From contig NC_049989.1 in assembly GCF_000003815.2 (NCBI RefSeq), positions 11,487,273 through 11,551,272 on the forward strand: 64,000 nt of DNA, written 5' to 3'. Each line of letters opens with the position of its first letter. Positions within the stretch are counted from its first letter, which is position 1. This document shows, piece after piece, positions 1,500 through 59,800 of the stretch. The translations under genes were made by a program, and so were the position numbers. This stretch comes from Branchiostoma floridae (Eukaryota; Chordata; Leptocardii; Amphioxiformes; Branchiostomatidae). The notes below the pieces were generated by a model. It was not told where the DNA came from. It searched no databases and saw only the letters and a program-made list of their open reading frames with translations.

Positions 1500-4400
1500 T
1501 TAGAACACCATCTCGTGTGGGTATTGGCCGTTCTTGAGGGAGAAGGTGGAGCGCATGTAGCTCTTCAGGTGTTTCTCATTGGTGAGGAGTGGCAGGATCT
1601 GACTGTCCACTTTCACCTGGTCCTCCTTTCTCTCCTGACTCACAGAGTATTTCTGAGGGAGGAAAAACATTATGATTCAGTAACAATGCCTTACACACCA
1701 GGGCTCGAAATACTTTTTTTCTGCATACCTGCACTGGTGCAGGTAACATTGAAAATTACCTGCACCACTCTAAATTTAGGAAGTACAGATCATACTAAAA
1801 TTGTTCAGAAATCATTGCTATTTTTTCTTTCATACTTTATAGGTGGTTACAGTCAATGCAGCTACTAACAATCCATACACACCTACATCATAGGACATTT
1901 ATGTATAAAACCCAGTACATGGACCAGTGCAGTTTACACTAACCTGCATATGCAAGTGGTATTTTGAGCCCTGCACACCAACTTTTATCAAACAACACAT
2001 GATTTATGTTTATGAAGGTTAGACATCCGATGTAAACAATGTTCAAATACAATTCAATCTCTATAACTGGATAAAAATGTAGATTTACTTCCGGATCATG
2101 TTTCGAGTGACATCCATCACTCTTCAGAGAACTCTTCTTCAATTGAATTGTACTGCCGGTTCAATTTATTGATGCTGAATAAGAGTGATGGATGTCACTC
2201 AAAACGTCAGTAAGTAAGTAGAAATTGAATTGTATTTGAACACATGATTTAACACTGTAACACTAACTAATCAAGTTTATTCAGAAACCTAATATTCAGA
2301 AAAAGTAGTGAAATGTCACCTCTTCCTCCGTGTCAAAGATCTCGCCCTCTTGGTGCTTGGGTTTCCTCAGCCTCTTGCGCTTGAAATACCGGTCATTCAG
2401 GCGGGAGGGGAGCTTCACACCGGAGATGTCGATCTTTGTCTTCGTGGCAATCACGTAGATCTGGTTGACGCGGCGCAGGGGGACAGCGTTGAGCTTGAAC
2501 GGACCTGCAAAGAGCAAGAGGTCAAGTCACATCAGCACTGATCACATCTTCTACTACAGACATCAGAATGTTTTCCTTTATCATTGTAGATCCAATGAGC
2601 AGCCTACTTTGTAAACCCCCCACATTTAACTACCCATATATTTTTTTTCAATGAGATTATTCAAAGCAAGGTCACGAGGCCACTTCAAGGCAATTAACTG
2701 GGAAGTTGGAAAGTGTGCACGGAGATAGCGGTGGACATTTGTTTTGAAGGCTGATAAGTTGTAGACAGGGAGGGAAACAAGAGTCACCAACTGAGTTCCA
2801 TAATTTTCTGTCCAGGGAAAGAAACTGTTGCTGTAGAAGAACTTCGAAACCGGCAATTGGACAGTACAGCAATGTGAGGTTGAAGAGAACCTTGATACCT
2901 ATGATACTTTTCATACTGTAGAAATTTAAGTACAGAAAACAAAGAATTACGTACCAGTGACCAGAAGAAGACCAGACATTTTCAACTGCTTCAGGAAAAT
3001 AACTTTCTGTGAAAGGCAAAAAATGATGTCATCAGTTACATGAAGATACCTGTCAGTGATTAAACAAGATTTTAATTCTAACACGCATTAATGAAAAATG
3101 TCAGTTCTAATGAGCATTGTCTACAAATGTTTTCACAGAAATATGTCTAAAGACTCTATGGAAGATTTAAATCATGTAAGTACTAGTAGTGTTGTGCCCA
3201 GAATTTAACCTGGACCTGAATCCAGTCCTTAACATGAGTTCAGTTACACAGCACTAAATGGTAGTTTGTGTGTGGTCCTGCGTTATATATGGGTTAACTG
3301 TGGCAACACCTGTTAGAGCCATGCTCACGGTAAACAAGCAGAGCTATCTTAGTGTTGCCTAGAAAATTATCTTGCTACCAGTCTATCAATCTCCATAATT
3401 TAGTATACAGGACTGAGAAAGTGGGTAGCACAACTGTTTATTCAACACAGTTATTATCTATCATCTCTTCTATTCACTTTGTTTAAGTTACCTTAGTTGA
3501 CCTTTGTTATTTTCCTGCTTACAAATGGTATAGGCTTTGTTTCTTACATTTCATTTTATTCAATTATTGTACGTGTATTGTGACAGACTCGAGGAAGAAT
3601 AGTGAAAAGATATCAGGGCTCGAAATACTTGCACTAGTGCAGGTAACACTGAAAATAACCTGCACCGGACAAATTTTACCAGCACCACTCTAAATTCAAG
3701 AAGTATGGATCATACTAAAACTGTTTAGGAACCATTGCTATTATTAATTCTTTTATACTCTCTAGGCAGTAACAGTCAATTCAGCTAATAACAATCCACA
3801 TACACCTACATCATATGAAATTTATGTATAAAACCCAGTACATGGACCAGTGCAGTTAGGTGCACTAACCTGCATGTGAAGGTGGTATTTCAAGCCCTGA
3901 GATCCAAATAAAAGAAACAAATAAGCAGCAAAATCAATGGTTATGAGTTACCTTTCCCTTATGCCTGCCTGACACCAAGATCAAGACAGTGCCAGGTGTG
4001 ATGGAAGGGCGCAGCTTCTTCTTGTGCTGGGAGAAGGGCTTCTTGTTGCTGCGAAGTTTGCGGGGGACGTCCTCTGTAGGGTAGTACTTCGGCTGTGGGG
4101 ATTCAAAAGCACATGGATGAATCAAGGAGGTTGAAAGAGGGGACCCCCTTTCAACCTCCTTGGATGAATAAACTGAATGACAATGCATACATTTGATTGT
4201 CAGAAATGACTTCACCGTTTGTTGAAGGTTCCGGTTCGAAATTTGTTTTGACCAGATGGAGTAAGTAATCCATTAAAATAAGACTCAATCATAGGTCGCC
4301 ACCTGAGTTTTGGCTCTCAATATTTTGGCTAAAAAAATTGATTTTAATTTTTATTGATATTTTTTTACCAAAAATGACACTTCTACAAAAATCCACTAAG

Positions 4401-5491
4401 TCTGTTGGTCAGCCCTTCTATCGGAAACTTTAAATTGTCTGAAAACCGATGTTTTGAGAGAACTAGCGCTTTTCCGAGAGACAGTCAAATCGGCCCAAAA
4501 TCGTAACTAAAAAAACAACAACTCTGAACCGAGACCTATTACGGTAACATGTCAAAGTTCATGGCATCCAACACATGAACAAAAAACATTGTATAATACT
4601 AAACTTTGTTCTAACACAAAACATTATTTTCCTTAGCATTGTACTATGATTACTACCAACACAGATAGCTTCTATGAATACATCAGGACATATGTTAAGC
4701 ATCGTCTAGACAATGACTGTTTAAAAGTTAGGGGCCTTCAGCATTGATTACATGCATGTATGTTTGATTCAAACCAGCATTGTGCTATATATCAAAATTA
4801 TTATAAATATGACAGTACATACCGTCCTGCTGACTGGGACCTTTCTGGTGCCTCCGTTCTTGTCACCACCAATGTCTTTGTTGACGAACCGGGTGTTTTT
4901 CTTGGTTTCTGTCTTAGCCCTAGATTTAAGAATAAAAAAGGTTATATAAATCACATGGGAATGGAAAAACATTAAGAGAATTAGCAACCATTCCAGTATA
5001 ATTATGAGCATTCATTAAGGCCGTGGCCTGGCTGCAGTACTGGCACGGAACGCTATGATGATGATGAGCATTCATTGTGAACACACTGGATTACTGTGGG
5101 TGGTAGTGAAAATGCAGTTTAAGACATGCACATGTTTTTTTCTCGCAGTTTTACAGTGGGAGGAAGGATTATACATCAGTAGTAATAAATCACAAATGCG
5201 TATTCTCAGTATCATGAATTCACTGCAAAAACTAAACAAACCTAAATAAAAGTTTCAAGATTTATCCCCACCTCTCAAACTAAATATACGACACTTCTGG
5301 TGCCATAAATGAAATAATCATTCAACTTATAAGGACTAAGATACTTACCTAGGCTTTTTCAGGGCCTTCTTGATGCGCTCATACATGAAGGTCTTGGCCC
5401 ACATCTTAGAGCGGCTGTTGCGGCCAACCCCCTTGATGAGGGTGGCATTGCGGGAGCAGTGCTTCGTCGCCTTCTTTTTCTTGTCCGGCAT
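1500..5491 (-). CDS. RPL6: Large ribosomal subunit protein eL6 (RPL6)
   Basis: Six coding exons on the minus strand: 5349-5491, 4823-4919, 3952-4092, 2955-3006, 2320-2504, 1500-1652 (771 nt, 256 residues). All introns are GT-AG and all junctions keep frame. Family blocks are read directly: [84 protein letters not shown] and the terminal [10 protein letters not shown]. These match animal eL6, a structural protein of the cytosolic 60S subunit. The N-terminal basic extension is shorter than in human eL6 (288 residues). The ATG sits 5 bases after an AG acceptor (5497-5498), so a non-coding 5' exon lies upstream, as is usual for ribosomal protein genes. An AATAAA lies at 1461-1466 on this strand. 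Confidence 0.96.
1699..1973. mobile_element. hAT-like MITE, copy 1 (RPL6 last intron)
   Basis: About 275 bp starting CAGGGCTCGAAATAC and ending TATTTTGAGCCCTG, so the ends are inverted repeats of the CAGGGCTYGAAATA type used by hAT elements. A second copy at 3614-3899 aligns through nearly its whole length, including the internal ACCTGCACCACTCTAAATT and ACCCAGTACATGGACCAGTG blocks. No coding capacity. I could not find an exact 8-bp target duplication, so it is probably old. Confidence 0.75.
2041..2240. mobile_element. Palindromic MITE / foldback
   Basis: The left end GTTCAAATACAATTCAAT matches the reverse complement of the right end (TTGAATTGTATTTGAAC). Inside, GAGTGACATCCATCACTCTT (2107-2126) is repeated inverted at 2187-2206. 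The roughly 200-bp unit is therefore a long interrupted palindrome in the RPL6 last intron. Non-coding. Confidence 0.65.
3614..3899. mobile_element. hAT-like MITE, copy 2 (RPL6 intron)
   Basis: Starts CAGGGCTCGAAATACTT and ends GTATTTCAAGCCCTG. It is homologous to the copy at 1699-1973, with scattered substitutions and small indels. It lies in the intron between the exons at 2955-3006 and 3952-4092. Its right end is only about 50 bases from the latter exon. Confidence 0.75.
4123..4162. mobile_element. Ultra-short palindromic element, 40 bp, with 7-bp direct repeats
   Basis: Two perfect 15-base arms (4123-4137 CAAGGAGGTTGAAAG and its reverse complement 4148-4162) around the 10-base loop AGGGGACCCC. 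The palindrome is flanked by exact direct repeats GATGAAT (4116-4122 and 4163-4169); an extra G makes this look like 8 bp. It shares its ends CAAGGAG...CTCCTTG and its direct-repeat flanks with the elements at 32229 and 57568. It lies in an RPL6 intron. Confidence 0.6.
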
Positions 5492-8029: not shown

Positions 8030-11000
8030 ATGCCAGTTTCAGGTACGCGTTCTTTGTTTGTGTTTTGTACAAAAATTCCTACCTCTAGAGTAGATTAGAG
8101 TAAGACTGAGTAGACTGACACAGGACAAATTATGCATTGTACGAAAAACTATATTTTATAATTTTGAGCGATGCGTTCGCTTATTGATAAAAAGAGTAGC
8201 TACTGTTAGCATGAAAGTTCATCTGTTGGTAAATGACAATGTAATATTAAACAATCGTCATGTGATTGTTTAGACATTCCAGATAGACATGAAGTAAGAC
8301 TTCTTTATATCAATGATCCTAACCTTAAGAATGTTTTGGACTTGTCTAATTTCTTAAATGCCTCTGCCCATCTCAGCTGAAAATTCTCAAGAGGACCAGG
8401 TCAACTATAGACATAAGTACAAGAACTTGAAACGGAAGCTGAAGTTCCTGGTCTGTGTAAGTCAACCAGCCCAAATAAAGATGCTGGAAGCTGTTGTTAC
8501 GTTTTCTATCCGTAATCCATAGGTGTTACTGTAAATTCAGTTACTTTTGTGGCAGTTATATTTCATTGTAGGAGGGTACTAAGTACTATCTCATTTGAAA
8601 TTTAAAGTACTACTTTAAATGAGATTTTTGTGGTGTTTTGAATTCATGGCTGAAACAATTCTGTAGTACATTATGGTCATATTTGCTGTCAGCACGAAAA
8701 TAACACCACTGATATTTTCAAGGATGTAGTTAGTATCTTGTTTGCAAAACTGATATAGGGTAGGCTACAACTTTTGTAAAGTTGATGTAAAATCATCAAT
8801 CATGAACTCCTCTGATACTTGTTATTGTTCAATCTTTTACTGTTTATCATTATGAATCACATTTAAATGTGGAGTATTTTCTATGAAGCACTCAAACTTT
8901 TTATAACATACATTATTTCAGTGGCTTTTTTTTTATAACATTGGTGACAATCTTTTTTTCTAGGAACAAGAATGTTTCCAAGAAGAACTCAGAAAATCAC
9001 AGAGGAAACTACTGAAGATCAACAGAGATAAAAGGTGTGGAAAATAAATACAATAACATTTTACTCCTGCTCCACTCTATAATTCTTCATAACAAGAACA
9101 ACACCAGAGGCAAATCTTGTTCTTCATCTGTTGGTATTTGTAAATGATTAATATTCTACCTTTTTATTATTTAATATAGGTAATTTTGCCTTTGTTTTTA
9201 TTTACAGCTTCCTTTTGGATAGACTGTTGCAGTATGAATGTATTGACCAGTCATCATCAGGTATGTGTTACCTGTTGTGTGTTTGTGTGCTATCATGCTA
9301 TGAATATAAAATCTAGTGAGGCACCAACTTTATATGATATTAAAGATAGAAGACACAGTGTTTTGTGGTAGTGATATGGTTGTTACAAGCGTTCTTTTTA
9401 GACATCTTGAGCAAGTAATAATGAATAAACATAATGTCAACTTGGGAGCTGAGCATACTTGTACACTTTGTTTTTCAGTTGTGTAACTGTAAGTTTATCC
9501 CATGTTTTTTTCTTCCACACATATATCAGACTCAGAAGAAACTGCATCATCTGATAATGCTAGTGACACAGAAGGACAGAAGGTTACAGGGACTGAAGGT
9601 TCCAAACACAAGTGAGTGACTCTAATTTGTGACATTGTATCATAGATGTACCATTTGCTTGCTTACTGGCTAATATCATTAGCTTTGCCCTTCTTGATTC
9701 TTGATAGCTCCCCATACTAGGTGCCCCTTACATTCCTGTCGCCCATTGCTTGGATTGTGTTGTCTAACTCAAGGCCAGCATCCTTCTTAAGGGTGTATTT
9801 TTAGATTGTTGCTGGTCTTCCTGGCTTCCTCTTTCCATAAACTATCTAATGTTTTGCACTTGGCAGAAATGGAACTGTCTACTTTATCACACTACCCTTG
9901 CAAACTGAAACACAATCTTGATAATTTACAAAAATGTTGTACATTTTCAGGAAGAAGACAGCCCCTTATGCTCCCATGTTTAACCCCAGCACCATGTCGG
10001 GCATGTTCGGACCCTTGGGATACCCACAGACTGGTGCCATGACACAACCCATGATGGTAACTCCACTTTTTCTCTTTTTCATTCTTCGTTTTATTGTTTA
10101 TCATTGTGGGGGTGAACAGATACCTGTTCTGTTGTTCACACCTGCATGACATTGATGAAAGGAGGCATACAGCTGGTCTTTCCATTTTTTCTACTGTTGC
10201 ACACAATTTTCAGGCATTTTTAATACCTTCCTTGACATATCAGTACTACTGTTCATGGCCCATACAGGCTCCGACCATGGCTGGATTTGCAGGCTATTTC
10301 CCCTCGGCACAGAGAGTTAAGAGTGAGAGTCCAGGGCCAGGCAGACCAAGGAAACAACAACAGAGACCCAAGAAATGTAAGCTAACTGGAAACGATTTCT
10401 AGTATTATATTACATGTAATTGTTTACTTTTGATAATTCAATATTTTTCATTTGTTTTCTTTTTAGGAAACTAGTTCTAGTATATAGCTATTAGGGTAAA
10501 CAATTGTACTACTTGTGCTATCATTATTGTGATTGTGTTCTTGACTGTACAATGTACTACCCTTTTTTAGCCTCAACTAAGTCTAGCAAATCAAAAGCGG
10601 CCAAAGAACATGGTGACTCCAAGGGACAGTTGTCATCCTTACAAATGCCTGGGCCGCCCTCTGCCACTGTGCCACATGAACTCTTTAGTGGGGGCACTGG
10701 GAATCCAGAAAGGTGGGTAAAACATACTTGATCCCTGTTATTCCTGTTATAAACCCACTGTGAACCATGTGATCACAACTACTCAAACCCCCCTATTATA
10801 GTAGACTAGTCCTGTTACAATTCCCATTTGAGGAACAACATCGAGAAATTACATAATGTTTACCTTCACATAGGCTAGCCTAACAAACTACTGCTCAGTT
10901 TATTCTTACTCATACTGAAATTTTGTATATAATGACCAGGCAGGTTCTTTGGCTCTCTCCTAGTCTTAGTTACAAGTTGCTACATTACTAGTATGTTATC

Positions 11001-20809: not shown

Positions 20810-23800
20810 CTACCGATGATACTGCATCATGGGCTCCGGCATCCTAAGAATCCCGTGTGGCTGGTTCGGAACCGGCTGATACGGCTGACTCTGGTACGGC
20901 TGTCCCTGCCCGTACCCGTAGTTCCCGTACACGCGAGGCTGCGGCGCGGGAGCGCTCTGTGAACGGTTCATGAGTTCCTGCATCTTTTCTGACTTGACTC
21001 TGCGCAGGTGTGCTAGTCTCCTCTTCTCCTGGTACTGTGAGAGGAAGTCTTCCACAGCCATGCCTCCTTCAAGGAACTGGTCAGCTAGGGACTGGGAAAT
21101 ACAGGTGCTGTCAGTATCAGCAAGAGCATATATGTAATGTAATACAATGTCATGTATAGCTAATTGGCATATTACACTAATTTAAAGGACAGCTATAATT
21201 CACATGCACCTACCATGGAGCACCAAATAGCAATTTTACCAGCCCATGTAAGAAACTGCCCATTGGTCAAGCAGACTGGCCTAACCAATTTAGGGAAGCA
21301 AGTGTCCCATATTTTGGCGACACGTATACGAAATTGGACTGAAGTACTGGTACTGACATTGCCCACCACGCTACCCACAATTTTGTACGATGCAACAGTT
21401 TCATATGTGTATGGGTTTCATACACTTGTAAATCCCACGTAGGAATGAGACCCTAATTCTTGGCCAAAACGATAGCTCCTCTCCACAAATTTGACGTGAT
21501 AATCCCCTTCATGATCTCAGTCTACGTATAAAATCACCAACGGTACCTCAGATTCCTCCTCTATCTCCGCAGCAGCGGCCTGCAGTAGTGCATGGGTCGT
21601 GTCCAGGTCATTCTTCTGCGTCAGGGACTCTGAAACCCAGGTTAAAACTTCAAATTTTCCTTTTTTTACAGTGTCTTAATTACGTTTACCTTGTTGTCTT
21701 TGACTTTGCATCATTTCTTCTTCTTCTCCAAACAAATTACCTCTACCCGATGGCTGTCAGTACAGTTAATACTGGTAAAGTGGCAAACACCTCATATCAT
21801 GTAGCAAGTGGCAGGACAGAGCTGGAGAGGCTGGTCATCATACATGTGTTTGAGTAAGAGCTGGACACTATATGCATTTGCATAAATAGATATAATGGCT
21901 GTGTTGTCCTTAAAACGTTCACAAACATTTCTAGAGTACGAAGACATGGCATTCTGAGAGAAAAAAATGGCATGCTCTAGATTAAGACACCAGTTACCTA
22001 GTCGCTGTTTTTTCTCGTCGTACAGGACTCGTAGTTCGGCAGCCTCCTGGTGTACGCGGGAGAGTTTCTGTCTGCCCGACACCAGCTGAGGTTCCTTCTC
22101 CAGGTTAAACTCAGCCAGGCTGCGGTTACTGGCCAGTAACATCTCACGCTCAAGCTGAAGGGACTTCACCTGGATGTTTATATATAATACTGTAAATGCA
22201 GAAACTTTCGTGGTGGTTTAATGTTCGCGGTTTTCGAGGTAGCCGTTTCACTGCAAACTTAAAACCACCGCAAACACTTTCATTGGTAGTAAGAGACTAC
22301 AGTGCTACGAAAAGTCCTTTTTCAAGGTACCGCGAAATTAAATCCCTGCATTTACAACTTTGGTACCACATACCAATGAATTACCGCTTTACAAAGCCTT
22401 TGCTACTGTAATCAAGCTAAGAATAACTTTTTTGAGATCAGAGGTCAGGCCTGGCGGCCGGTGGTGGTATTTTCGGGCTCCCGAGTTTTTTCGCCATTCT
22501 CGCCCGTTTTCCAGGGCAACGGTAGGATTAGAACGGTCTAGAACAGCTGGGTATATTAGCTGAACTTTACAGACACCTTCTAGTTAACAGTTTTGACGTT
22601 TTTGTACTGCATCGATCCTCTATTCCGGAAAACATGCACTCGAGTTTCGCGCCAAGCGCTACGACGCGGCGCCATGTTGGCTTATTGTTGTGCGTGAATA
22701 TCTTGCTCGCCCTTTACCGTCACTTTATGTGCGCAGCATGCGATTTGAAACATGCAGAAGAAATATGTAAAAGTTGTGATTTTGGCAAACAAACAGGTTT
22801 TAACATACTCTTTAGCAAAGGAGGTTATGAGACACACTCGCCCAGCCTGCTGGGCTTGGGTATATCATCACTAGTCAAACCACTCGGTTCAAAATACAAC
22901 AGGGGATACGGGGCGCCGGTACCTCTGGGTTTTGAGGGTCCATCTGGATTTCTGCTTGCTATCCTCCTCATGTCAGGGGATGTGCACAGTAACCCCGGAC
23001 CTATCAAGTTCCCGTGCGGAGGGTGCGGTCGCGCCGTGGCCTCAAACCATCGAGCCATGCAATGTGATAACTGTGACCAATGGGTTCATATCAAATGTTG
23101 TGGAGTGGGGGATAAAATGTACAAACATTACCAAAACTCGTCATGCTCATGGATCTGTAACAACTGTGGTTTGCCTAGCTTCACCTCCAGCTTGTTTGAC
23201 TTTAGCTCATGGATTCATGATAGGGATGAATCATTCTATAGTCCTCTCCTAGAGAGGGATATAGATGATGACACCGACGACAACATTTCACACATTGCAT
23301 CCAATTTTACCACAGGTTCCAATACCCACAGCGAATCCTGGTCTTCAGATAACAACACTTTCAATGACAGCATCCCATCCTTCAAACCTACCTCCACTTC
23401 CTCTCCCTGCACTACCCAATCCCTGGGCAAAGGTAAGGGAATTTTACAGAACCTACACGTATTAACTATTATCTTTGAATTGTAGGAGTCTAAGGGGAGT
23501 AGATAAAAATGCCCAGTTTAGTGCATTAGTAGCCACAGAAAACCCTGATGTTATCTGCGGAAATGAGTCACACTTAGATCCTGATTATACAAATGCAGAG
23601 ATTTTCCCAGAAGGCTACGATATATATCGTAAAGATCGTAACAGCCAAGGAGGGGGGGTGTTTATTGCTGTTAGGTCCTCCTTGGTCTCATCGCCTGTAC
23701 ATGACCCCTCAAATGCGGAGATTGTATGGGCTATGATACAACAGGCAGGATATAGACCCTGGTGTGTGGGCTCAGCTTATAGGCCCCCAACCTCTGGACT

Positions 23801-26800
23801 TGTGTATGTGGATGAACTTGAGACATCTCTGAACAACACTGTAGATAAACCCTCCCCACCAAATTCGCATTATTCGGGGACTTCAATATGCTGGACATAT
23901 GTTGGAGCTCTGAGACGCCCACCGTCAATCCCACGCCCCAATATGGGACGGGACTGAACGAGAAATTTCTAGAGGTTGTACAGAGCTCTAGCCTGTCCCA
24001 AGTGGTATTGGCCCCTACTCGTGGCCATAACATACTTGACTTGGCTTTAGTGTCTAATCCTGACCTGGTGGAGAATGTCAATGTCACCCCAGGGATAAGT
24101 GACCATGATGCGGTAACAGTAGGCATAAAAACCCACGTCAAACACAACAGGAAGAAACCTCGTACAGTTTACTTATACAAGAAAACGGATAAACCAGCGT
24201 TAGTAGAAGGGATAAAAAACCTAGAGAAACAATTCACGGAAAGAGTCCCAACCAACCACTCAGTAGAAGACAACTGGAACTACTTCACAAAAGGTCTCAA
24301 ACATCTCATTCTCAAACATATACCCCAGAAAAGACTGTCTAATAAAAATCAATGTCCATGGTTTAACTCATCTCTTAAACGTATAATCAAGAAGAAGAAA
24401 AAACTCTACAAAAGAGCTAAGAGTACAATGGAAGAACAAGACTGGGAAAACTTTAAGACCATGCGCAGACTGGCTAAGCAAAAGATCAAAAAAGCACACA
24501 ATGATTACTTAAAAGAAATCCTAGATGAAGCTTTGGAAAATCCCAAGAAATTTTGGCAGTACATAAAAAGCAAAAAACAGACGTCGTCTGGGGTGGCCCC
24601 CCTAGCGCAACACAACAGCCTCGTTGTGGATGCCCAGGGTAAGGCAGAAATCCTCAGCAGGCAGTACGACTCTGTCTTTACAGATGAAGACATGGTCAAC
24701 GTACCCGACCTAGGGGACAGCCCCTACCCCGACATGCCAGAGGTCGAGGTGACCCTGCTGGGGGTGCAAAAACTCCTACAGGGGATAAACCCTGTGGGCC
24801 AGATCAAATTCCCTGCAGAATTCTTAAGGACTACGCCATAGAGATCAGTCCAATTTTACAAATAATCTTCAACCAGTCCCTTGCAACTGGGCAGGTACCG
24901 ACAGACTGGCGGACCGCTTTTGTGAACCCAATTTTTAAAAAGGGGGACAGAAGCGACCCCGCAAACTACCGGCCCGTCTCTCTCACCTGCGTCTGTTGTA
25001 AGCTCCTGGAACACATACTTTTCTCAGCCACCATGAAACATTTAGAAACTCATAATATCTTACTCCCCACCCAACATGGATTCAGAACAAAACACTCCTG
25101 TGAGTCACAGCTGATCACAACTCTACACGACCTAACGTCTTGGTTTGACATAGGGCAGCAAATAGATATGGCTATTTTGGATTTTTCGAAGGCATTCGAC
25201 AGCGTTCCGCACCACAGGATGCTGCATAAGTTACACTTTCACGGGATCAGGGGGCGAACACTCACCTGGGTACAAAACTGGCTACTGGACCGTCAGCAAC
25301 AAGTGGTGATCGATGGGGAAAAGTCTGGTCCTGTCAGAGTAAGATCCGGAGTACCTCAGGGAACGGTGCTAGGGCCATTACTTTTTTTGATTTACATAAA
25401 TGATATCAACAAAGACATAACATCCCAATCAGACTATTTGCTGATGACTGTCTCGTTTACCGCCCCATAGTCCGTGACGAAGACCATTATGCCCTCCAAA
25501 CTGACCTAGATAATCTTTGTATGTGGTCTAACACTTGGCAGTTGCGCTTTAATGTAAAAAAATGTTCCATCTTGCACATCCACAAGTCCAGAAGCTCACA
25601 TGATTTTTTGTACACAATGCTTAACGAACCACTCAACTGTAACAGCCAGCATCCGTACCTACATGTAGGTGCCATTCTCACCCACAATCTTACTGTATAG
25701 GTGGAAGCCTCATATCAATGACATTACAGCCAAAGCCAACAGCACCTTGGGATTTGTCCGACGCAACTTAAGGGGGGCAAGTAAAGAGGTAAGAGCTAAG
25801 GCTTACACTTCCATAGTCCGCCCTAATAGAATACTGTTCTTCAGTCTGGGACCCCCACAAACTAAAACACGCACAAACGAACAGCCTTGAGGAGAAGCTG
25901 GAATCAGTCCAGCGTAGGACTGCCAGGTTTGTCACAGGCAACTACAAACAATCCACCAGCAATACATCACTACAACAATCACTTGGATGGGCGACCCTAG
26001 CACAGAGAAGACAACAAGCACGACTTACACTAATGTACAAGGCAGTCAACAACCTCATTGCAATACCCATCCACACCATACTTACACAAAACAACAACAT
26101 TACAAGAGGTCACAACCAACGTTTTTAACATGCAAAACCGAAACATACAGGGCAAGTTACTTCCCCCGGACAGTCATAGAGTGGAATAGCCTGCCAGAAC
26201 ATCTGATACATACCACCTCCGTAGAACATTTCAAAGCTGGGGTAGCCAAGTATTATGGCTACCCTAGCTCTACCCAGCTGTAAGACCGAACTATGCCCTA
26301 GCAACTTGTACAGCACAGCACTGTTATTTTTGTCTGTTGAATGAATACGTTTTTTTTTTTTTTTCACTATTTTTGTCTCACCACCACCGGTTTGCTAGGG
26401 CATCCTCACTCCCCTGGGCACAAAGTCCCGCGAGGGGCATTGCCCAGTATTACGTAGATGTAGATGTAGGAGTCGCTGGAAAAAGTAGAAATTGGCCAAA
26501 TAGACTGAAAGTTAATTAACACACTACTTTGGCAAATTTCTACTATTTCCAGTGACATATGATTTACAAAGCCTAGTAGAGGTCGTTTCATACGTTTATA
26601 TGTATCATAACTTGTACTCCAATATTATGATTCCAGCCATTTAAAACGCATTCGTCCAACCGGGCTGGAACAACTCTACTCTACTCTACTCATTNCCGAA
26701 CCTTCTGCACGTCCGAGTCGTGAACTCCTCTGAACCTTCCCGATATGCGGAGGGGTCATGTGATAAGGTAACGCACCAAATATGGAGCTTGATTCTGTCG

Positions 26801-29800
26801 GCGTACGTCGGAGGCTGTCGGAAACTCTCGGAAAAAGTAAAAAATTCCCAGAGATCAGTGCGGTCCATAAAAGTTTTATCGACGCCCGGACGGACGCCAA
26901 CATGGCTCCAAAACGGAAAGCGAAAGATGGAAATTCGTCCTGCAAGAAGAAAACGACAATCCTGTCATTTCTCACCCGTGGTCGACCGGAAGAGAGTGCG
27001 ACCAATAACAACCAGAACCCTGACGATCAATCCAGAACTCGAGAGCTTCAAGACAAGGTATGCATCTATTTACAAAGATTGTTTTGGTATATCTCTGCGC
27101 CAGCTGTTTTTTATATCAAATTTATGTTTGTATTTTGTCATTTCTTACTCTGTTTTTTTACGGTTAAGTTTAAATGCGAGTGTGATGGCTGATGGCGTAC
27201 ACAGCGTTCCGTCAGGGTTACACAAAATTACAGCGGCGCTCTCATAGTGATACTAGTGATATATAATTTGCTGGACTAATATAAAATATTGTTGATTCAT
27301 CATCTTGTATCAACAAATATTTTACATCGTGCAGTCCCCGGCGGAGGAGAGTCCGGCTGTCACATATTTGTTTGGGACGGAAATACTCAACCGAACCAAA
27401 CGAACAGTTTGCTGAGAAAAAAAAAAACTATACAAACTGCTGCATGGTTTTGTTACGGCGTGGGGACGATGTGGACACTCACTTTATTCAGGAATAATTG
27501 GTTACAGACGCACGCACTGTCAGCGGCCGGGGAATGATGCCTCGGACTATCCCGCCGGTCTGGAGCGAATTAGCTAGGGATGACCGTGGCAAGTCCGTGT
27601 GTGGTCAGATCAAAACATAAATAAACATCATTTATCTTAACGACTTAATTTCTTGGGATTATATAATAGACTCCCTTATCAACCAACCGGGCAAATCAAC
27701 AAGAAATGCAATTTGTATCATAACAGGTCTTGGATGTGCCACTGACTTTGCCCACAACACCCGAGTCAGGAAGAGCGCAGCCTACATCGTCTCAGAAAGA
27801 GCCGGGAAAAGCGCAGCCTACACAATCCCAGGAAGAGCTGGGACAAGCGCAGCCTACATCGTCTCAGAAAGAGCTGGGAAAAGCGCAGCCTACATCGTCT
27901 CAGAAAGAGCCGGGAAAAGCGCAGCCTACATCGTCTCAGAAAGAGCCGGGAAAAGCGCAGCCTACACCGTCCCAGGAAGAGCCGGGAAAAGCGCAGCCTA
28001 CATCGTCCGTGTCATCTCCAAGTGTTTCATCCCAGCCTGCTGCTTGTGACTGCATAGGATGTACCATTACAGGCCCTGGTGCATTTCAACCCAAAGATCC
28101 CACAGTTCTTAGCGCATTTCAGAACAAGGGAAGAAAGTTTCAGTCGGACTGGTACAAGGATCGCAAGTGGATCACCTTATGCACAAAACAGCGAAAAGTG
28201 TTCTGTGCCCCCTGTCGCTATGCCAAACAGCACAGGCTCACCTTTTCCACTAACCAAGAATCTTCCTTTGTGACAGACGGGTTTGACAATTACAAGAAAG
28301 GGATTGAAAGGTTGGACATTCACGCGGCTTCAGACCCACACACAGAAGCTGTGTTGAAGTGCTCTGCCATTTCCGGACAATCCATTGAAGCTCAGCTCAA
28401 CTCACAAATGGCGGAAACACAGCGGCTCCATCGGGATGGCCTCCTGAAGCAACTGTCAGCCCTGAAGTTTTTGTTAAGACAAGGACTTGCCATCCGAGGT
28501 CACCACGACAAGGATGGCAACCTTTACCACCTTCTACAAACTTGGGCTGACGACAGTGAAGTTGTCCGTTCGTGGTTACATCAAGGACGCTTTATGTCGC
28601 ATGACCATATCAACGAACTGATCAATCTCATGGGCAACGATGTCTTGAGGTCGGTGCTGGCACGAATAAAAGGCAGTAATCCAGCGTATTTTGCTATCAT
28701 TGCGGACGAAGCTACAGATGTCTCTTGCAATGAACAGCTGAACATCAGTGTCCGGTATGTAGATCATGATTACGAGGTTCATGAGGACAGTCTTGGCCTC
28801 TACAAGCTCTCATCTACAGACGCCGCCACCATCACAGCAGCGATCAAAGACACCCTTCTCCGGACAGGTCTTCCACTGAAACTGTGTCGCGGACAGGCGT
28901 ACGACGGGGCAGCCAACATGAAGGGCCATCGCACTGGGGTCGCAACGCGAATAAAAACAGAGGAGCCTGCCGCCGTCCCAGTCCATTGCTGGGCCCACTC
29001 ACTAAATCTGTGTCTTCAAGATACCTGTAGACAGATCGTGGCCGTTCGGGACGCAATGGATCTTGCCAGAGAAATTGACAAACTGATCAATTACTCGCCA
29101 AAGAGGAAGACCTTGTTCACACAATTGGCCTCCGGAGCTGATTCATCAACTTCAAGTGGAACGATCAAGCCCCTCTGTCCCACACGCTGGACTGTACGAA
29201 CAGGAGCCCTTGAGAGTATCCTCGCTAACTACAGCACTCTCATGGACACTATGCAGCAAGTCAACGAGACCACAAGGGACGAATATGGATTGAAAGCTGG
29301 CGGTGTCCTCGCTGCGTTGGAAAAGTTCGGCACGCTCTTTTCTATCCGCTTAGGCCAGCTTCTGTTCTTTGCGGCGGAGACGACGTCGACGACCTTGCAA
29401 AAGAAGGACTTGAGTGTACAAGAAGCCATGGACAGTGTGGAGACACTTAAGAAGTACTATCGGCGCCAGAGAACGGAAGAGTCGTTCGACGCATTCTACG
29501 CATCAACGGTGGAGAAGGCTCGAGAGCTGAACATAGACGAGCCAGTGCTTCCACGGTACCGACGTCAGCCGAGGCGCCTGGACGATGGAAGTGATCCGCA
29601 CAGACACGCCTGCCCAAAGGATTTCCATCGTCTGGTTTACTTCCAGGCATGTGACCTCCTGATAGGAGAACTTACAGAGAGGTTTAACCAGGAATTCCTG
29701 AAGCCTGTCGTCGCCATGGAGAAGCTCCTCCTGAATGCGGCGAACGGAGACGACTTCACAGAGAAGATGGATGAAGTCACGTCGTCAGTCTTTGGGAACG

Positions 29801-31661: not shown

Positions 31662-33949
31662 GGCGGCAAATAAATCACAAGAAAACTAAAAACGAAAGGA
31701 AAACATTATTACACTGCATAGAAGATGTCGGTCTTCGTCTGAAATTGATCGCATCTACACGTGGCAATTAAAATATGTACGTCTAAGTCTAATATCCTTT
31801 GCATACGCCATGCATACGTAATAAAATCGACTAGAATATTTATAGAATAGTTTTTATTCAAGATGCTTGGAGGAGCATCTCATTTTCAGGGGTGATATTC
31901 TTTTTTGTTGGAGAAAATAATAGGCTCATGCTTCGATGCGGTGTATAGCCATGTCGACGGTACAGAAGCGCCGCTATGCGACAGATAATCAAAATACATG
32001 CACCAATACCGTTGTCACACGCAACAAGCCTCTCCGTGTTGGGCTGCCTGTTGCCATATACGGAAAACGGGTTTCCATAAATGGTGAGGGAAGCCCTGTA
32101 ATCTACGAAGGCGTGATTGCTCATGACACCGCCTTCATCGTTTCTCGTGCAGTAGCGACCTCTTGCGGAACTTCCAATGACTTGCGTAAAGGAGAAGAAA
32201 CTTATTCTCAAGTTTTCCTTTGTGAAATCAAGGAGCTTTTATCAGATAAAAGCTCCTTGGTGAAATAGAGAACAGGAAACAAATACATGTAGTATAAGAA
32301 TTTGACTATGTGTCCAAATTATTTGATGACTCACAATAATTAAAGATTAAAGAATCATTCCAAATGTGCATACAGTGCTGTTAATGCAACTTTATTACTC
32401 ATTTTCTGTGTGATGTCCCAAACTAACAGACTAACGTTACCAGTAAAAAAACCTGAACCATGAGGGTCATCCTTACTGAAAACATCAGTCTGTATGGTGT
32501 GAACAAGGAGGGGAGGTTCAACTTTTTAAGTCACAACAAATTGATAACTGGTACATTCTATGTTACAGTTCTCAACGTTATAGACTGGTTTCATACTAGT
32601 ATATTCAGCAATTTCAGTATCATCATTATCATAGAACACTGATAATGCTCAAGCGAACAGAAGGGTTCCTTCCAATAACTGGATCATTTTCTGTCAAAGC
32701 TTGGTACAGTAAGATGAAGTGGATTGTCTACAACTTAATTTGTTACTTTTTTCAAGACCACCTTCTTCATACGCTTCATTCAATTTTTGTATTCAACCTA
32801 AAAAAACACAGGTGACTTCATTATTTCTCTGTAAGGCCACACTGACCTCACTACATGGATGACATCTACAATGTACATATGCATCAATTGTTGTCTGTTT
32901 CAAAAAAAAAAGATTAGGATCATAATGTAAGTCTTTTTTCTTTGCACGCTTGCACGTCAGTTTTGTGTTGTGCATGGGATGTCATCCATGTAATCAGTAT
33001 GGTTGAAACTATTATTTTTCTCTGTATTGGAAAAAATAGGATTTGTTTTCTTACACATTGCAATAACCATTCTTCAATCTTTATCATCACAATACACTGT
33101 GTCAAAGACTTATAAGTAGGCAAATTACTTCTTTTAGAATGTGTAGTATCTCTGGCCTCATCAAATATCAGAGACATTTGCAATTGCAACATCCTCGCGC
33201 CATCCAAAGTACACATACCAGTACAACGGGCTATTTTTTCTTTCTTTGATCATACAATCGAACATACTGTTGTCTTAACTAACTTCTTTCTTACAACTGT
33301 AACCTCTACATACTTCTGGCAAGTTGTTGCAATAAATGTTTCAACAATTAACAAAAACTCTTAACTGTAGTGAAAAAGTATAACAAAACTATTGGACTCT
33401 TCCCAGTTAATCTTCTTGGAGGACAAATTACCACAAAAGTTTGATCAAATGGTCACTTTGGCACCTGTCTTTGCTGTGCTCTATGTTACATAGAGATTCT
33501 AGAAAAAGATCTAGCGTTTCACTTTTCTTATGTATTCAGAGTATTCAGAGCTATTGGTCCACTTGGCTTCATATGAAACATATCCTTAATACTAGCATAC
33601 TTGTATTTCCACATTAAGAATATACATTTCACAGTAATTCTATAGCAGTCACTATATCATGCATGCAGAAGCCTTTTGACAACTGTGAAAATGCAACTAC
33701 AGTGTTTTTGTATGTCAGAACAGATTATCTAATGATGCTTCACAAAACTTACAATACAGAAAGTCTGAACAGTCAGACTGTAGTGTCTTGCTAGTCAGAC
33801 CATGAAGGATCAAGAAGTAGTGGTAAGGAGAAGATTTCAAAACCATGATTGATGTAAGATTGTGATCAATTTCATAGAAAATGAGTTTTGAATATGAAGA
33901 TGTTAATTCCTGAATCACCAGGTCCTGACATCGATACAACGGGGTACTT
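31662..33949. other. Intergenic between VPS37 and the large nuclear-protein gene
   Basis: No supported gene. A 110-codon plus-strand frame (31936-32268) has no recognisable domain and an overlapping open frame on the other strand, so I do not call it. The stretch includes the VPS37 promoter (just above 31661), an ultra-short palindromic element (32229-32259) and the AT-rich 3' flank of the gene on the right. Confidence 0.4.
32229..32259. mobile_element. Ultra-short palindromic element, 31 bp, with 7-bp direct repeats
   Basis: Perfect 15-base arms (32229-32243 CAAGGAGCTTTTATC and 32245-32259) around a single A, flanked by exact GTGAAAT repeats (32222-32228, 32260-32266). Same ends CAAGGAG...CTCCTTG as the elements at 4123 and 57568. 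Confidence 0.6.
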
Positions 33950-51870: not shown

Positions 51871-51880
51871 CAGTAATTGA

Positions 51881-53761
51881 ATGAAGGGCTCTGATTTACA
51901 TAATCCCTTTCACAGAGATCAGAACGCATGTGCGGCAACAGGAATTCTAGGTGATATTACTCTCCAAGCAGAGGTTGNNNNNNNNNNNNNNNNNNNNNNN
52001 NNNNNNNNNNNNNNNNNNNNNNNNNNNNNNNNNNNNNNNNNNNNNNNNNNNNNNNNNNNNNNNNNNNNNNNNNNNNNNNNNNNNNNNNNNNNNNNNNNNN
52101 NNNNNNNNNNNNNNNNNNNNNNNNNNNNNNNNNNNNNNNNNNNNNNNNNNNNNNNNNNNNNNNNNNNNNNNNNNNNNNNNNNNNNNNNNNNNNNNNNNNN
52201 NNNNNNNNNNNNNNNNNNNNNNNNNNNNNNNNNNNNNNNNNNNNNNNNNNNNNNNNNNNNNNNNNNNCTGGCATTCCTGTACACAGGCAGCTGTAGAGTC
52301 AACGTGTGGACAGCTGTGGACGTCCTGATGGCAGCAGACATGCTGCTCCTACCAGACTTAAAACAACGGATGATTGACTTTCTGATCGAGAAGGTTTCAC
52401 TTGACGATAACATGCTCTTTCTGCACCGCCTTGGTAGGGAGTATAGCATTAGTAACTTGGAACTTGGAGCTAGAAGAAAGATAGCAACAGAGTTCTTTAA
52501 CTTTGTCAAGACAGAAGATTTCCTACAACTGACAAAGGATGAGTTTGCAGTGTTTCTTGCAGGTAATGACATAGTTCTTGGGGGTCCAAGTGTAACTCCT
52601 GAGCAGCGTGAGGAACTTGCATTCCAAAGTGTGGTGAGGTGGGTCCGGGCGGACTCCTCGAGGGAGCAGCACGCTAAAGAGTTAATGTCCCACATCCGAT
52701 TCCCTTTCATGAACAAGTCGTATGTGTCAGATGTTGTGAAGGAAGAGCCATTGATGGCAGTATGTCCTGAGTTTGTAGATGAGGCAATGGAGTATCAGAA
52801 TACAGAGGAAGGTGGGAGGGGGCACCTCCAGACTAATCGTACCCGCCCTGTTTTGAAAAGCTCTGAGCCAGTCATCTGTGCTGTGAGACAGGAAGGCCCG
52901 CGAGCCAATCTCGCTTGCTTTGTGGTGAGTCACAATAGATGGTACGAGCTTCAGACTCTATGTCTACAGGACGGAGAGTCTGTCACTTGTGCGACCGCGT
53001 TTGGGTCAGGGCCAGCACTCAGTCTACTGGTAGGGACGTCGTCTGGTCGTGTGTATGATGTCCAAGTGACCCAGGTAGTGGAGTTAAGCACCACCCTTCC
53101 TGGTCATGTAGCATGTGACAAACTGTTGTCATTGTCAGTGAAGGGAAGCAAGAATGTCTATGCACTTTGCAGTGAAACAGATCCAAGTACAGGATCTACC
53201 TTCTCAAGGATGTTCTGTTTGTCTGTTAAGCAGTATGTTGATACTGCTAGTTGTGAGGAGCTCCCGGGAATCCCTCATCCTTTGAAACAGTATGAGGCAA
53301 CAGTCATGAACCAGAAAATTTGGGTGTTAGGTGAAAGTGTTGACCCAAGGCAAGACTACAAGACCCTGCAATGTTTTGATGTCAGTTTCTCTACCTGGTC
53401 TGAAACTGTTATCCCACTCACGTTCCTCCCCAAGACACCATATATCGAATGCCTCTCTGTACCAGGCACCTTGTTTAATTCAGTATTTTCATCACTGTGC
53501 TTTCCTTTTGGAAGGCAAAAGCTGTTGTTCTCTGAAAAGTTGGCCAGATGGGTGGTATGCCGCAGCTTTCGGCTTCCTGGCGATTCTGACACAGTCGATG
53601 ACTATTTCATGGTGCAAGAAAATGGCTGTCATCTTCTGTCGAAGGTACCAGTGGATGGAAAGTGTCAGTTTCGCGTCCAGAAGCCTTTCAGAGCAGGAAG
53701 GGGCTGGGACCCCAGGCCTTCCCTTCCATGGGACAGCTGCACCTTGTTGTTTGGCACCTAG
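51881..53761 (+). CDS. BTB-BACK-Kelch-like protein, interrupted by assembly gap
   Basis: Before the gap the frame reads GILGDITLQAEV, the start of a BTB domain (L.DVTL pattern). After it, LAFLYTGSCRVN is the BTB end, followed by a complete BACK domain (LGREYSISNLELGARRKIA ... AFQSVVRWV, to about codon 305) and a long beta-rich region with weak Kelch-like units (NRWYELQTL, KIWVLGES, FSTWSETVIPL). Stop at 53759-53761. Such proteins are usually Cullin-3 substrate adaptors. The 300 N stand for the middle of the BTB and their count is probably arbitrary. The start ATG at 51881 gives about 20 residues before BTB, but an acceptor CACAG at 51911-51915 means the start could be in an earlier exon. All coding after the gap is in one exon. 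Confidence 0.8.
   Translation: MKGSDLHNPFHRDQNACAATGILGDITLQAEVXXXXXXXXXXXXXXXXXXXXXXXXXXXXXXXXXXXXXXXXXXXXXXXXXXXXXXXXXXXXXXXXXXXXXXXXXXXXXXXXXXXXXXXXXXXXXXXXXLAFLYTGSCRVNVWTAVDVLMAADMLLLPDLKQRMIDFLIEKVSLDDNMLFLHRLGREYSISNLELGARRKIATEFFNFVKTEDFLQLTKDEFAVFLAGNDIVLGGPSVTPEQREELAFQSVVRWVRADSSREQHAKELMSHIRFPFMNKSYVSDVVKEEPLMAVCPEFVDEAMEYQNTEEGGRGHLQTNRTRPVLKSSEPVICAVRQEGPRANLACFVVSHNRWYELQTLCLQDGESVTCATAFGSGPALSLLVGTSSGRVYDVQVTQVVELSTTLPGHVACDKLLSLSVKGSKNVYALCSETDPSTGSTFSRMFCLSVKQYVDTASCEELPGIPHPLKQYEATVMNQKIWVLGESVDPRQDYKTLQCFDVSFSTWSETVIPLTFLPKTPYIECLSVPGTLFNSVFSSLCFPFGRQKLLFSEKLARWVVCRSFRLPGDSDTVDDYFMVQENGCHLLSKVPVDGKCQFRVQKPFRAGRGWDPRPSLPWDSCTLLFGT
51968..52267. other. Assembly gap (300 N)
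   Basis: Run of 300 N inside the BTB domain of the gene above; a round number suggests a placeholder or estimated length. Confidence 0.99.
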
Positions 53762-56882: not shown

Positions 56883-59800
56883 TCATCTATTCTGATTTTC
56901 ATGCTGGGCTATTAACATATATACAGCCTTCTTGTATACATTAACGACAGCTCTCTGTTGTCTTGAAAACGGGTCAAAATCGTCCTCTGGATTTCTCCGG
57001 CGCTTGAATTTTCCTTCAGAATTCCTTACGACGCAGTTCATTCTGTCTTGCGAGATCGCCGGAAGGTTTAAGAATATGGCTATTCTTCTGAGTTGGTTTT
57101 CAAGGTCGTCTCTTAGTCTCTCGTATTGGACGATGAGCAAAGGGCCGGGAAACTTCAGCCAATCAAGAAACGTGTTGCTCCATGTCTGGGATTTCCCTTC
57201 GACGAACTCCCGCCACGCTGCAGATGAAACAGAGAAGTCGATTGGTTAGTATAGGGTAATTTACCGTTGGCAGAAAGTGCCTTCACCAACTATACATGTA
57301 TATGATTCTTCATTTCAGTAATGCAATAAAAAAATATATTTGTCAAAATAATCATAATATGATGACACTTCCTTAAAAACCCTGCCCTACCTTGGCTCTT
57401 ATATCTAGCCTTGGCAGCAAATCCGTTATGGCCGCCGTAGTGTCGGTTAAACTCTGCTAAGATAGCGTCGTATGGGTCTCGCACCATCAAGATTGTCTGT
57501 AGAAAACAAAATGACATTCATAAGGCACATGTGCACAGTTTTTTTTAGAAACCTACATATGAGACACCAAGGAGCTTATATAAGCTCCTTGGAGACACAT
57601 ATAACCTATATATAAGGTAGAAACGTGTAGAGGCAGCTTCCGTCATTCATTTTCTTTTGTTTTTTACATAAAATATCTCCACATATATTGTACAGCGGAC
57701 ACACAATGAACTGAAGCTATTTTCAACTATATATAGCTATATAACAAGGTTCTATATTCACAATCACAATGCAGGATCTGAATTCTGATGTTTTGGCGAC
57801 CGTCTAACTTCCCAGCAAAAATGGCTGGCACTTCTTCGTATTGCCGCTAGGTGTCGCTGCAGTCTTACAAATGACGTCGTGAATAAAGAACATTGTTATA
57901 CAGTCATTACCTGCATGTATGCAGGTATGGTTTTGATGCTGGTGGAAACTTTTCGGTAGCCGGGGATGTAGGGCGCTGTATCTCGTGAACGGATGGTGCG
58001 AGCACGACGATTTTTGGTACGTGGGTTGGGGGTGGTAGCCTAACACTCAGGTTTGATTTTGGGCCTCCTGGCGTTTGAACTTGACATTGCAGGTGGCATT
58101 TTTGGTGTTTTTTGGGCACTTTTGGCGCTGTGTGTCCGGAACGATACGCGCGATTGCGACGATTTTTGGTGCATGGGTGGGGGGTTGTTGCCTGTTGCCT
58201 AGGATTGACTTTGGGCCTTGTCGCGTTTGAACTTGACCCGGCAGGTCAAATTTTGTGTCCGGGAGGGGTGTTTCCGGAGTTATATCTTCTGAACGGCTGG
58301 TGCTGGCGCGATGATATTTGGCACATGTGTCGGTGGTGGCTGAATAATGCTCAATTTTGATTTTGGCGCCCTTGGTGCTTGAACTTGACATTTTAGGTTA
58401 CCTTTTGTGCGGGCACGGGGCGTGCGCTGTATCTCCGGAACGCAAGGTACCATTGTGTTGCTATTTGGTACGTGAGTTGTTTGTGGTGTCCTGGTGGTCA
58501 GGTTTGATTTTGGGCCTCCTAGTGCTTGAACTTGATACTGTATAGGTTGACCCTGTTTTTGTGTGGTTGGGGCATCCTCCCAATATCTGCTTGGTTTTAA
58601 AAACAGATTATGGTTGGGTGTAGAACCATCATCTGACCTGGGCCACCTTCAATGTATCAGGTTACTTAGTGGCACTGACAGTTTGCCAGATGACGGGAGT
58701 GTACAAGATTATATATCTGTTGGTCAGGTATAATTGGAGTTTGCTTATTACTCTTTGTGGTGTTTCTAGAGCTGTATAGTACTGAGTTTTAAGTTCCGGT
58801 ACAAGTTCCTTTACCCTGTTGGCAACCATGGTTGAACTTGAACTTAAACAGAAGAAGATGCAATTTTCTAATGTGGAGGAGAACTGTATAGAGTGTGGGC
58901 ATAAGAGAAAGGTATGTGTATGATTTGTCCTGTGTTTCTTTTTGTTTCTTTGGTAATGCCATTTCCATACTGTATACAGGTAATTTGTTGTTTTGGGCTA
59001 GTCATATTCGCTTGGTTTTTGGGCCTGCTTAATCTATGGTACAGGCAGGGTTAAGTGGTGGAGGCTTAGCTTTGTTCTGTTTTGAATTCAGTATCGTTTG
59101 TTGCATTTTGTCGCGGCAAATATATGATGAAATTCCCCTTCTAAGCAACTGCTCATTGGTTTGCGGGGATGTTTGCTGGGTGTTTGCTCTGACTACAACA
59201 GCTTCTGAACTTTTCAAAGCTTCCATTGCCAGCAGCTTGCCATCTATAAATGGGATTGACAAGGACATTTTTCATAGTAAATTGTGCTGTTAAATTTGGC
59301 TTAGATACTACAGGAGATTTAGGTTTGGGTTGGATGGATTGAATGAAAATATCATACCACCCTGGGGACTAACTGTTGCTGCTGCATGGGGGCTACCACT
59401 ATTCATATTGTCTAATGTCTATGGAACTACAGATAAAAGTATCATTGGTCAAATTATGCAAGTAACATTCCGATGTCAAGTGAATAACACCCCAGAAATA
59501 AATCTTTAATGAATATCATTGGAAGAACACAAACCAAGGAGACTTAGCAGCTGCATTAGGTCAGTACATTGAAATAGGAAGATATTAGTATATCATGTGA
59601 CAGAGTAAGTACATGTGCATGGGCCATCTGAGACAAAAACAAGTACTGTGGTTGGTTGGTTACATACTTAAGAAATCCAAAATAAGTAATGTTCACCCAT
59701 GTCCAAACTTACAAATTCAGAAAATGGAATTTCAGAGTCAGACTTTTGCATGGTGCACAACCAACACGGTAAAAAGCTCATTTTTCCAACCACGTACCAC

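What the first reader, a model, noticed from the sequence alone, without database searches (positions are those of the whole stretch)
4116..57598. Three ultra-short palindromes with target-site-like duplications: a possible family of minimal mobile elements
At 4123-4162 (40 bp), 32229-32259 (31 bp) and 57568-57591 (24 bp) there are perfect-arm palindromes that all begin CAAGGAG and end CTCCTTG. Each is flanked by an exact 7-bp direct repeat that differs from site to site: GATGAAT, GTGAAAT, GAGACAC. Direct repeats outside unrelated loci are what transposition leaves. At 24-40 bp they are far below normal MITE size and are almost only terminal repeats. The loops differ, so these are not copies of one sequence; only the ends are shared. 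This suggests end-only mobilisation, remnants after internal deletion or excision, or a palindrome-inserting repair process.
Basis: partly seen in the sequence, partly recalled or inferred. Interest (0 to 1): 0.85.

Follow-up and report, generated by a model that had tools for sequence, protein, structure and literature searches.

The report
Scars left by departed P-type transposons
The three tiny palindromes are most likely not miniature jumping genes but scars left where full-size P-element-like transposons were cut out and the break was rejoined, and the many such scars in this genome preserve where the cutting enzyme cut.

Summary
CAAGGAG(N0-30)CTCCTTG occurs 3347 times in the 513-Mb genome, control 59. 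Of the first 50 sites, 27 have an exact 7-bp flanking repeat and 11 one mismatch; mispaired flanks give 1 and 21 of 2450. They are best read as excision scars. The only two long open P-type transposase frames found lie in 8.4- and 8.7-kb elements with CAAGGAG terminal repeats and exact 7-bp duplications. Scars carry the two repeat tips, joined blunt, by microhomology or with short inserts. In the family of 32229 tips stop at nt 17 (11 of 46 go on, chance level), as with Drosophila P, whose 17-nt tails rejoin in the same ways (PMC7776569, PMC2895639, passages). In the family of 4123 tips run past 17 (72 of 90) and fade by about 21. Empty sites with one 7-mer exist. New as far as searched: the scale, family-specific tip length, and a RAG1-N-terminal-like module where THAP is expected.

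The parts
4116..4122 (.). left copy of 7-bp target-site duplication GATGAAT
4123..4162 (.). 40-bp excision scar, type B (tips of a CAAGGAGGTTGAAAGAGGGGAAGG-like element; 21 and 15 nt match, plus filler)
   Evidence: (listed as C11:11491395)
4163..4169 (.). right copy of GATGAAT
32222..32228 (.). left copy of 7-bp target-site duplication GTGAAAT
32229..32259 (.). 31-bp excision scar, type C (tips of the L050 element family: 17 nt on one side, 15 on the other, sharing 1 nt); the same junction is at 13 of the 70 listed type-C sites on C1-C3, which do not include this one
32260..32266 (.). right copy of GTGAAAT
57561..57567 (.). left copy of 7-bp target-site duplication GAGACAC
57568..57591 (.). 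24-bp excision scar, third type (tips CAAGGAGCTTATATTGAG..., read by eye from sister scars; no intact element was sought), joined at a 4-nt overlap ATAT
   Evidence: listed as C11:11544840
57592..57598 (.). right copy of GAGACAC

Best explanation
Each palindrome is the repaired donor site of a cut-and-paste transposon with P-element-type chemistry. Shown: elements with CAAGGAG terminal inverted repeats and 7-bp duplications are in the genome, two of them with open frames for a transposase with a P/THAP9-type catalytic core; the palindromes carry only the first nucleotides of those repeats from each side, up to nt 17 in the L050 family and up to about nt 21 in the 4123 family. Inferred: the element inserted and duplicated 7 bp; the transposase later cut one strand at the element boundary and the other some 17-21 nt inside, so each broken chromosome end kept a 3' tail made of the element's tip; end joining with trimming, 1-4-nt microhomology or short inserts united the two tails. 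Because the tips are inverted repeats, the join is a palindrome between two copies of the 7-mer. The scar has probably no function.
For: (1) Elements: 8442 bp (TSD CTCTAAC, TIR CAAGGAGCTTTTATCAGGAGGAGAGAGCAAG) and 8684 bp (TSD AAGTCAT, TIR CAAGGAGGTTGAATAAGGG...) around the two long transposase frames. (2) Transposase core: RNaseH_N in both, GBD in L050, RNaseH_C in both; QDPLEQHF motif in both, DVPH in L051. (3) 15 facing pairs of exact L050-type ends (13 of 1187-1190 bp, one 4111, one 8442); 10 of the 15 read at both ends, 10 of 10 with exact 7-bp TSD, and the 8442-bp one too; 3 of 3 pairs of the 1217-bp type likewise. (4) Tip length: type C, 46 arms reach nt 17, 11 reach 18 (overlap removed 30 and 8). 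Type B, 72 of 90 go on from 17 to 18, but 9 of 35 from 21 to 22 (overlap removed 7 of 21). (5) Joins, relative to those repeats: type C 19 blunt, 26 with overlap, 25 with insert of 70; type B 41, 14, 25 of 80, the classes seen after real P excision (PMC2895639 Table 1, passages). (6) TSDs prefer G then T at the outer positions (35 and 42 of 60, both strands pooled), compare Galileo GTANTAC, also 7 bp (PMC4168063, passages). (7) Empty sites: 5 of 5 repeat copies spanning the L026 scar position carry one GGGTAAC and no palindrome. (8) A scar inside a scar, each with its own exact TSD.
Against: 12 of 50 sampled sites lack a 7-bp repeat within one mismatch. A few scars retain more than the edge: 27 nt (51-bp scar), 26-28 nt (54-bp scar), both with exact TSD, as internal deletion would leave. 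Arms already thin out one base before the type-C edge (46 of 78 go from 16 to 17; 30 of 69 with overlap removed). The type-B edge is soft: on distinct joins 8 of 19, or 7 of 17 with overlap removed, go past 21, and two repeat variants were allowed in the scoring. One 31-bp junction recurs at 13 of 70 sites, which a mobile mini-element would also give. No intact element was sought for the type of 57568. Drosophila P has an 8-bp TSD, here 7. No individual with the unexcised element at a scar site was available.
Confidence: 0.92

Rival explanations
1. The palindromes are themselves minimal mobile elements, moved in trans by end recognition alone.
For: Different flanking 7-mers (27 of 27 exact ones differ); one 31-bp sequence at 13 of 70 type-C sites, with different TSDs at the five read.
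Against: Junction diversity: 36 distinct palindromes among 38 sites with TSD, 39 distinct among 70 in type C and 56 among 80 in type B. Tips stop at a family-specific place of the full element's terminal repeat. Full-size elements with the same ends and TSDs exist. Recurrent joins are also what real P excision gives (one (AT) join at 14 isolates in PMC2895639 Table 1).
Confidence: 0.03
2. Internal deletion derivatives: aborted copy-back repair of the gap left most of the element out, leaving only tips in place.
For: A few scars keep 26-28 nt of the terminal repeat (51- and 54-bp scars). That interrupted gap repair makes deleted P elements is recalled, not looked up.
Against: Deletion end points should scatter along the terminal and subterminal sequence; in type C they stop at nt 17 and in type B mostly by 21-22. 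The 41-71-bp class is small (549 vs 3347) and partly other repeats.
Confidence: 0.04
3. Chance or an unrelated palindrome-making repair process.
For: Some matches are other things: 2 of 5 close pairs in the window and 12 of 50 in the sample have no 7-bp TSD.
Against: 3347 vs 59 genome-wide; exact TSD at 27 of 50 vs 1 of 2450 mispaired; arm sequences are those of resident elements for types C and B.
Confidence: 0.01

Closest known systems
Drosophila P-element excision products (P{wa} donor-site repair in Rad51-lacking flies, PMC2895639; review PMC7776569; passages read)
   Same: TSD + up to 17 nt of each terminal repeat + TSD; blunt, microhomology and insert joins; a favoured microhomology join; P-type transposase with GTP-binding insertion domain (found here in L050)
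   Different: 8-bp TSD there, 7 here; experimental breaks there, resident genomic scars here; tips past 17 nt in type B here; a class there in which the tips are lost, invisible to my patterns
Galileo (P superfamily, Drosophila, PMC4168063; passages read)
   Same: 7-bp TSD, preferred target beginning GT and ending AC
   Different: Long terminal repeats and a THAP domain there; repeats of 36-40 nt here, no THAP signature found
zebrafish Pdre2/THAP9 (PMC10983969; passages read)
   Same: P-type element in a chordate, ends CA...TG, short terminal repeats
   Different: 8-bp TSD there; at least 50 homologous sequences reported; no scar survey in the passages I saw
Transposons with the RAG1 N-terminal/Chapa module (Chapaev, TransibSU, PMC4411706; N-RAG-TP of Aplysia as told in PMC8355894; passages read)
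   Same: RAG1-N-terminal-like match at the start of the transposase frame (Pfam RAG1_imp_bd); that this is the Chapa domain was not tested
   Different: There on Transib/Chapaev cores or alone; here on a P-type core

Membership tests
P superfamily (parent elements) | transposase with P/THAP9-type RNase H core split by a GTP-binding insertion domain | tested here: met
   L050: RNaseH_N E 9e-22, GBD E 2e-5, RNaseH_C E 3e-8 in order on one strand, in separate frames. L051: RNaseH_N E 7e-21, RNaseH_C E 3e-7, GBD not detected in the frames given
P superfamily (parent elements) | N-terminal THAP DNA-binding domain | tested here: not met
   No THAP among Pfam hits of the frames given and no C2CH signature in any frame of 40 aa or more on either strand of either element. 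A THAP split by an intron would be missed. I therefore call the elements P-type by core and chemistry, a variant rather than a plain member
P superfamily (parent elements) | 7- or 8-bp TSD | tested here: met
   exact 7 bp in 2 of 2 coding elements, 10 of 10 and 3 of 3 further pairs read
P-element-type excision scar (window palindromes) | two copies of the TSD around the two terminal-repeat tips | tested here: met
   3 of 3 in the window; 38 of 50 genomic sites within one mismatch
P-element-type excision scar (window palindromes) | tips end at the stagger, 17 nt in Drosophila | tested here: met
   type C edge at 17; type B runs past 17 and fades by about 21; third type about 18, by eye
P-element-type excision scar (window palindromes) | staggered cut made by the transposase | not testable with these tools
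   inferred from tip lengths; needs a cleavage assay
MITE (mobile mini-element) | copies of one sequence with an internal region between terminal repeats | tested here: not met
   36 distinct palindromes among 38, no internal region. The 1187-1190- and 1217-bp elements fit non-autonomous copies; only their ends were read

The most novel reading that the evidence does not exclude
The stagger is a family trait: transposases of related families cut at different depths (17 nt in the L050 family, about 18 in the 57568 family, about 21 in the 1217-bp family), and thousands of resident scars act as rulers from which the cut position and the germline end-joining habits can be read even for families with no intact copy left; the transposase itself is a P-type core carrying a RAG1-N-terminal-like module instead of THAP.
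Probability: 0.45. Interest if true: 0.75.

Novelty: new variant of a known kind. Interest (0 to 1): 0.62.

Why it matters
P-element scars are known from Drosophila experiments. Here one genome keeps some thousands of them; for type C about 400 scars (581 strand matches times 70 distinct per 100 rows) stand against 15 elements with both ends exact, about 27 to 1, so excision dominates the visible record. That makes three things measurable from sequence alone: where a transposase cut, how germline breaks were joined over long times, and how often a transposon left. If stagger length really differs between sister families, it is a new variable in P-type transposition. The RAG1-N-terminal-like module on a P-type core bears on where that module travelled; [quoted passage not shown]

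Tried and rejected
Transposase: PF12017 found nothing, also not in the 14 control genomes; PF21787 found it. A solitary end in L001 looked like an element end, but the only other exact copy of its 26-mer shares sequence upstream too, so it is part of another repeat. No element over 70 bp with exact TSD was seen in the first 24 loci (210 kb). C3:4867539-4877247 looked like a 9.7-kb element, but its outer flanks are reverse complements of each other, so it is an inverted duplication and was dropped. A 14-bp case (L021) has inverted, not direct, flanks. The CAAGGAGTATAGCCGGC... hairpins are another repeat. One search was given a hand-picked part of the joins (37 of 56 distinct type-B, 36 of 39 distinct type-C); one search repeats it on all 80 and 70 listed sites and replaces it. 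That recount softened the type-B edge, and I lowered the novel-case odds from 0.5 to 0.45 for it. PDB sequence search of the transposase frame gave 3 hits, the best a RAG1 fragment at E 0.22. NCBIfam: one hit, E 0.094, not used. The TSD motif counts pool both strands, so their symmetry is imposed. Paper searches: open-licence papers only, seen as listings; passages were read of PMC10983969, PMC4168063, PMC5802833, PMC7776569, PMC2895639, PMC4411706, PMC8355894 and PMC7204232, no paper in full.
Full report
OBSERVATION. A blind scan of the window for a 7-bp repeat around a short inverted-ended segment finds only these three, against 0,0,0,1,0 in five simulated windows. I fetched flanks for all 50 sites that one search printed, all on contig C1: 27 of 50 have an exact 7-bp flanking repeat and 11 more one mismatch; pairing left flanks with other sites' right flanks gives 1 and 21 of 2450. 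The 27 exact repeats are 27 different 7-mers. Twelve of the 50 fail (2 or more mismatches); they include other repeats and possible decayed scars, and one (L002) has an exact 8-bp repeat instead.

THE PARENT ELEMENTS. A search with Pfam PF21787 (P/THAP9-type RNase H) gave 3 matches among 10 scored candidates. The two long ones lie inside elements with CAAGGAG terminal repeats: L050:633-9074 (8442 bp, TSD CTCTAAC) and L051:957-9640 (8684 bp, TSD AAGTCAT), with inverted terminal arms of 36 nt (94% complementary) and 39 nt (100%). The 767-aa frame of L050 has a RAG1_imp_bd match (E 7e-8) near its start and RNaseH_N (E 9e-22); further frames on the same strand carry the GTP-binding insertion domain (E 2e-5) and RNaseH_C (E 3e-8). 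In L051, RAG1_imp_bd (E 7e-10) and RNaseH_N (E 7e-21) lie in two overlapping frames that are out of phase, so a fusion in one frame is seen only in L050; RNaseH_C is present (E 3e-7); a GTP-binding domain was not detected. No THAP signature was found in either. The two transposase frames share 47% identity over 577 aa. Each element also has, on the other strand, a frame with a weak C2H2 finger match and a 350-aa frame without Pfam match, perhaps one gene; the latter is 54% identical between the two. A protein search with the L050 frame gives 23 matches (59 of 136 candidates scored, so a lower bound): the L050 copy, two pieces of the L051 copy (one with a TAA inside the aligned stretch), and 20 partial ones, 10 of them with stops and at least four over the repetitive P/T-rich stretch only.

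OTHER FULL-SIZE COPIES. The 23-nt L050-type end occurs 48 times, forming 15 facing pairs: 13 of 1187-1190 bp, one of 4111, one of 8442; the other 18 are single. I read both ends of 10 of the 15; 10 of 10 have exact 7-bp TSDs. The 26-nt type-B end occurs 30 times with 3 pairs of 1217 bp, 3 of 3 with exact TSDs; two of the 30 belong to one 54-bp scar and two to the inverted duplication that I dropped.

THE SCARS. Type C (L050 family; window 32229): 291 forward and 290 reverse matches, control 0. The 100 rows printed are 70 distinct sites, so about 400 in all (extrapolated). Their best tip match to the L050 terminal repeat is 15:4, 16:21, 17:34, 18:6, 19:3, 20:1, 27:1 (the pattern itself demanded 15). 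As a survival curve, 78 of 100 arms go from 15 to 16, 46 of 78 from 16 to 17, but 11 of 46 from 17 to 18, the 1 in 4 expected of unrelated bases. Without bases that either arm could supply it is 69 of 84, 30 of 69 and 8 of 30. Some sites read CAA at 15-17 and may belong to a variant end. Type B (window 4123): 55 and 52 matches, control 0; 80 distinct sites among the 100 rows. 72 of 90 arms go from 17 to 18, 35 of 45 from 20 to 21, 9 of 35 from 21 to 22. Twelve of the 80 share a 29-bp join in which nt 20-21 could come from either arm; with such overlap removed it is 72 of 90, 21 of 33 and 7 of 21, and on distinct joins 50 of 64, 17 of 26 and 7 of 17. So tips clearly run past 17 in type B, and the end near 21 is real but soft; two repeat variants differing at nt 20 were allowed in the scoring. 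Third type (window 57568): 28 and 27 matches, control 0, all printed, 32 sites; a 36-bp member is two 18-nt tips joined blunt (by eye). The window's 24-bp palindrome is the same tips joined at a 4-nt overlap, and occurs at C10 and C15 too.

JOINS. Type C: 19 blunt, 26 with 1-2-nt overlap, 25 with insert, of 70; type B: 41, 14, 25 of 80, counted against the repeats used. One 31-bp join (that of window 32229) is at 13 of the 70 listed type-C sites; five of these read with flanks have five different 7-mers, four exact and one with one mismatch, besides GTGAAAT in the window. The same kind of spectrum is printed for Drosophila P excision in Rad51-lacking flies: 8-bp TSD, up to 17 nt of each tip, blunt, microhomology and insert joins, one microhomology join at 14 isolates, and another class of 14 in which the tips are lost (PMC2895639 Table 1, passages). 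The review PMC7776569 (passages) names the 17-nt stagger as a feature that sets P transposition apart.

EMPTY AND NESTED SITES. Of 41 scars whose flanks I joined and compared with the 318,723 bases then held, two had matches elsewhere spanning the join. For the L026 scar (TSD GGGTAAC) five copies of the surrounding repeat, in L045 (2), L023 (2) and the window at 45930-45863, each carry one GGGTAAC and no palindrome. For L028 one diverged copy in L005 has no palindrome and a diverged 7-mer. L090 shows a scar (TSD GATATAT) inside an older scar (TSD GAATATC).

MECHANISM. Shown: elements, duplications, tip-only palindromes, limited tip lengths, join classes. Inferred: the transposase cut some 17 (or about 21) nt inside one strand, tails stayed on the chromosome, end joining made the scar. 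Six scars of 40-54 bp read with flanks all have exact TSDs; two of them keep 26-28 nt, and there interrupted gap repair may be the better account.

NUMBERS. Scars trimmed past CAAGGAG cannot be seen with these patterns, so the count is a lower bound; on the other side about a quarter of the sampled matches have no clear 7-bp TSD, so 2500 to 3300 is a fair range (inference).

KNOWN AND NEW. P-type excision scars are known in kind. The scale in one genome, the family-specific tip length and a P-type core with a RAG1-N-terminal-like module did not turn up in the ten paper searches listed (open-licence papers, listings and passages only). I did not see Repbase, whose entries may hold the elements.

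Noticed in passing
L050:1992-4295 (+), L051:7748-8509 (-): RAG1_imp_bd (PF12560) match on a P-type transposase, where THAP would be expected; E 7e-8 (same frame as the core) and 7e-10 (frame out of phase with the core).
   Followed up: partly
L050:6974-8062 (-) and 8636-8986 (-); L051:2043-3098 (+) and 1061-1453 (+): Possible second gene on the opposite strand of both elements: weak C2H2 finger match plus a 350-aa frame with no Pfam match, 54% identical between the two elements.
   Followed up: partly
G000:C3:4867539-4877247: About 9.7 kb bounded by two type-B ends whose outer flanks are reverse complements: an inverted duplication or assembly palindrome, not one element.
   Followed up: partly
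window 12753 and 54011; L011:5101-5138; several (e.g. G000:C1:939227-939285): Another repeat that also begins CAAGGAGTRTAGYC..., seen as hairpins of about 60 bp; by eye unrelated to the scars; it adds to the 41-71-bp count.
   Followed up: no
window 27724-30198 (+): 824-aa open frame that looks by eye like a hAT-type transposase (recalled resemblance, not searched).
   Followed up: no
window 22532-25470 (+): Open frames that look by eye like a PHD-finger plus endonuclease/reverse-transcriptase non-LTR element (recalled, not searched).
   Followed up: no
window 51978-52267: 290-base run of N inside an open frame that continues on both sides; plus a single N at 26695.
   Followed up: no
L021:4504-4517: CAAGGAGCTCCTTG at the centre of a longer perfect palindrome with inverted, not direct, flanks: a different kind of object.
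   Followed up: no
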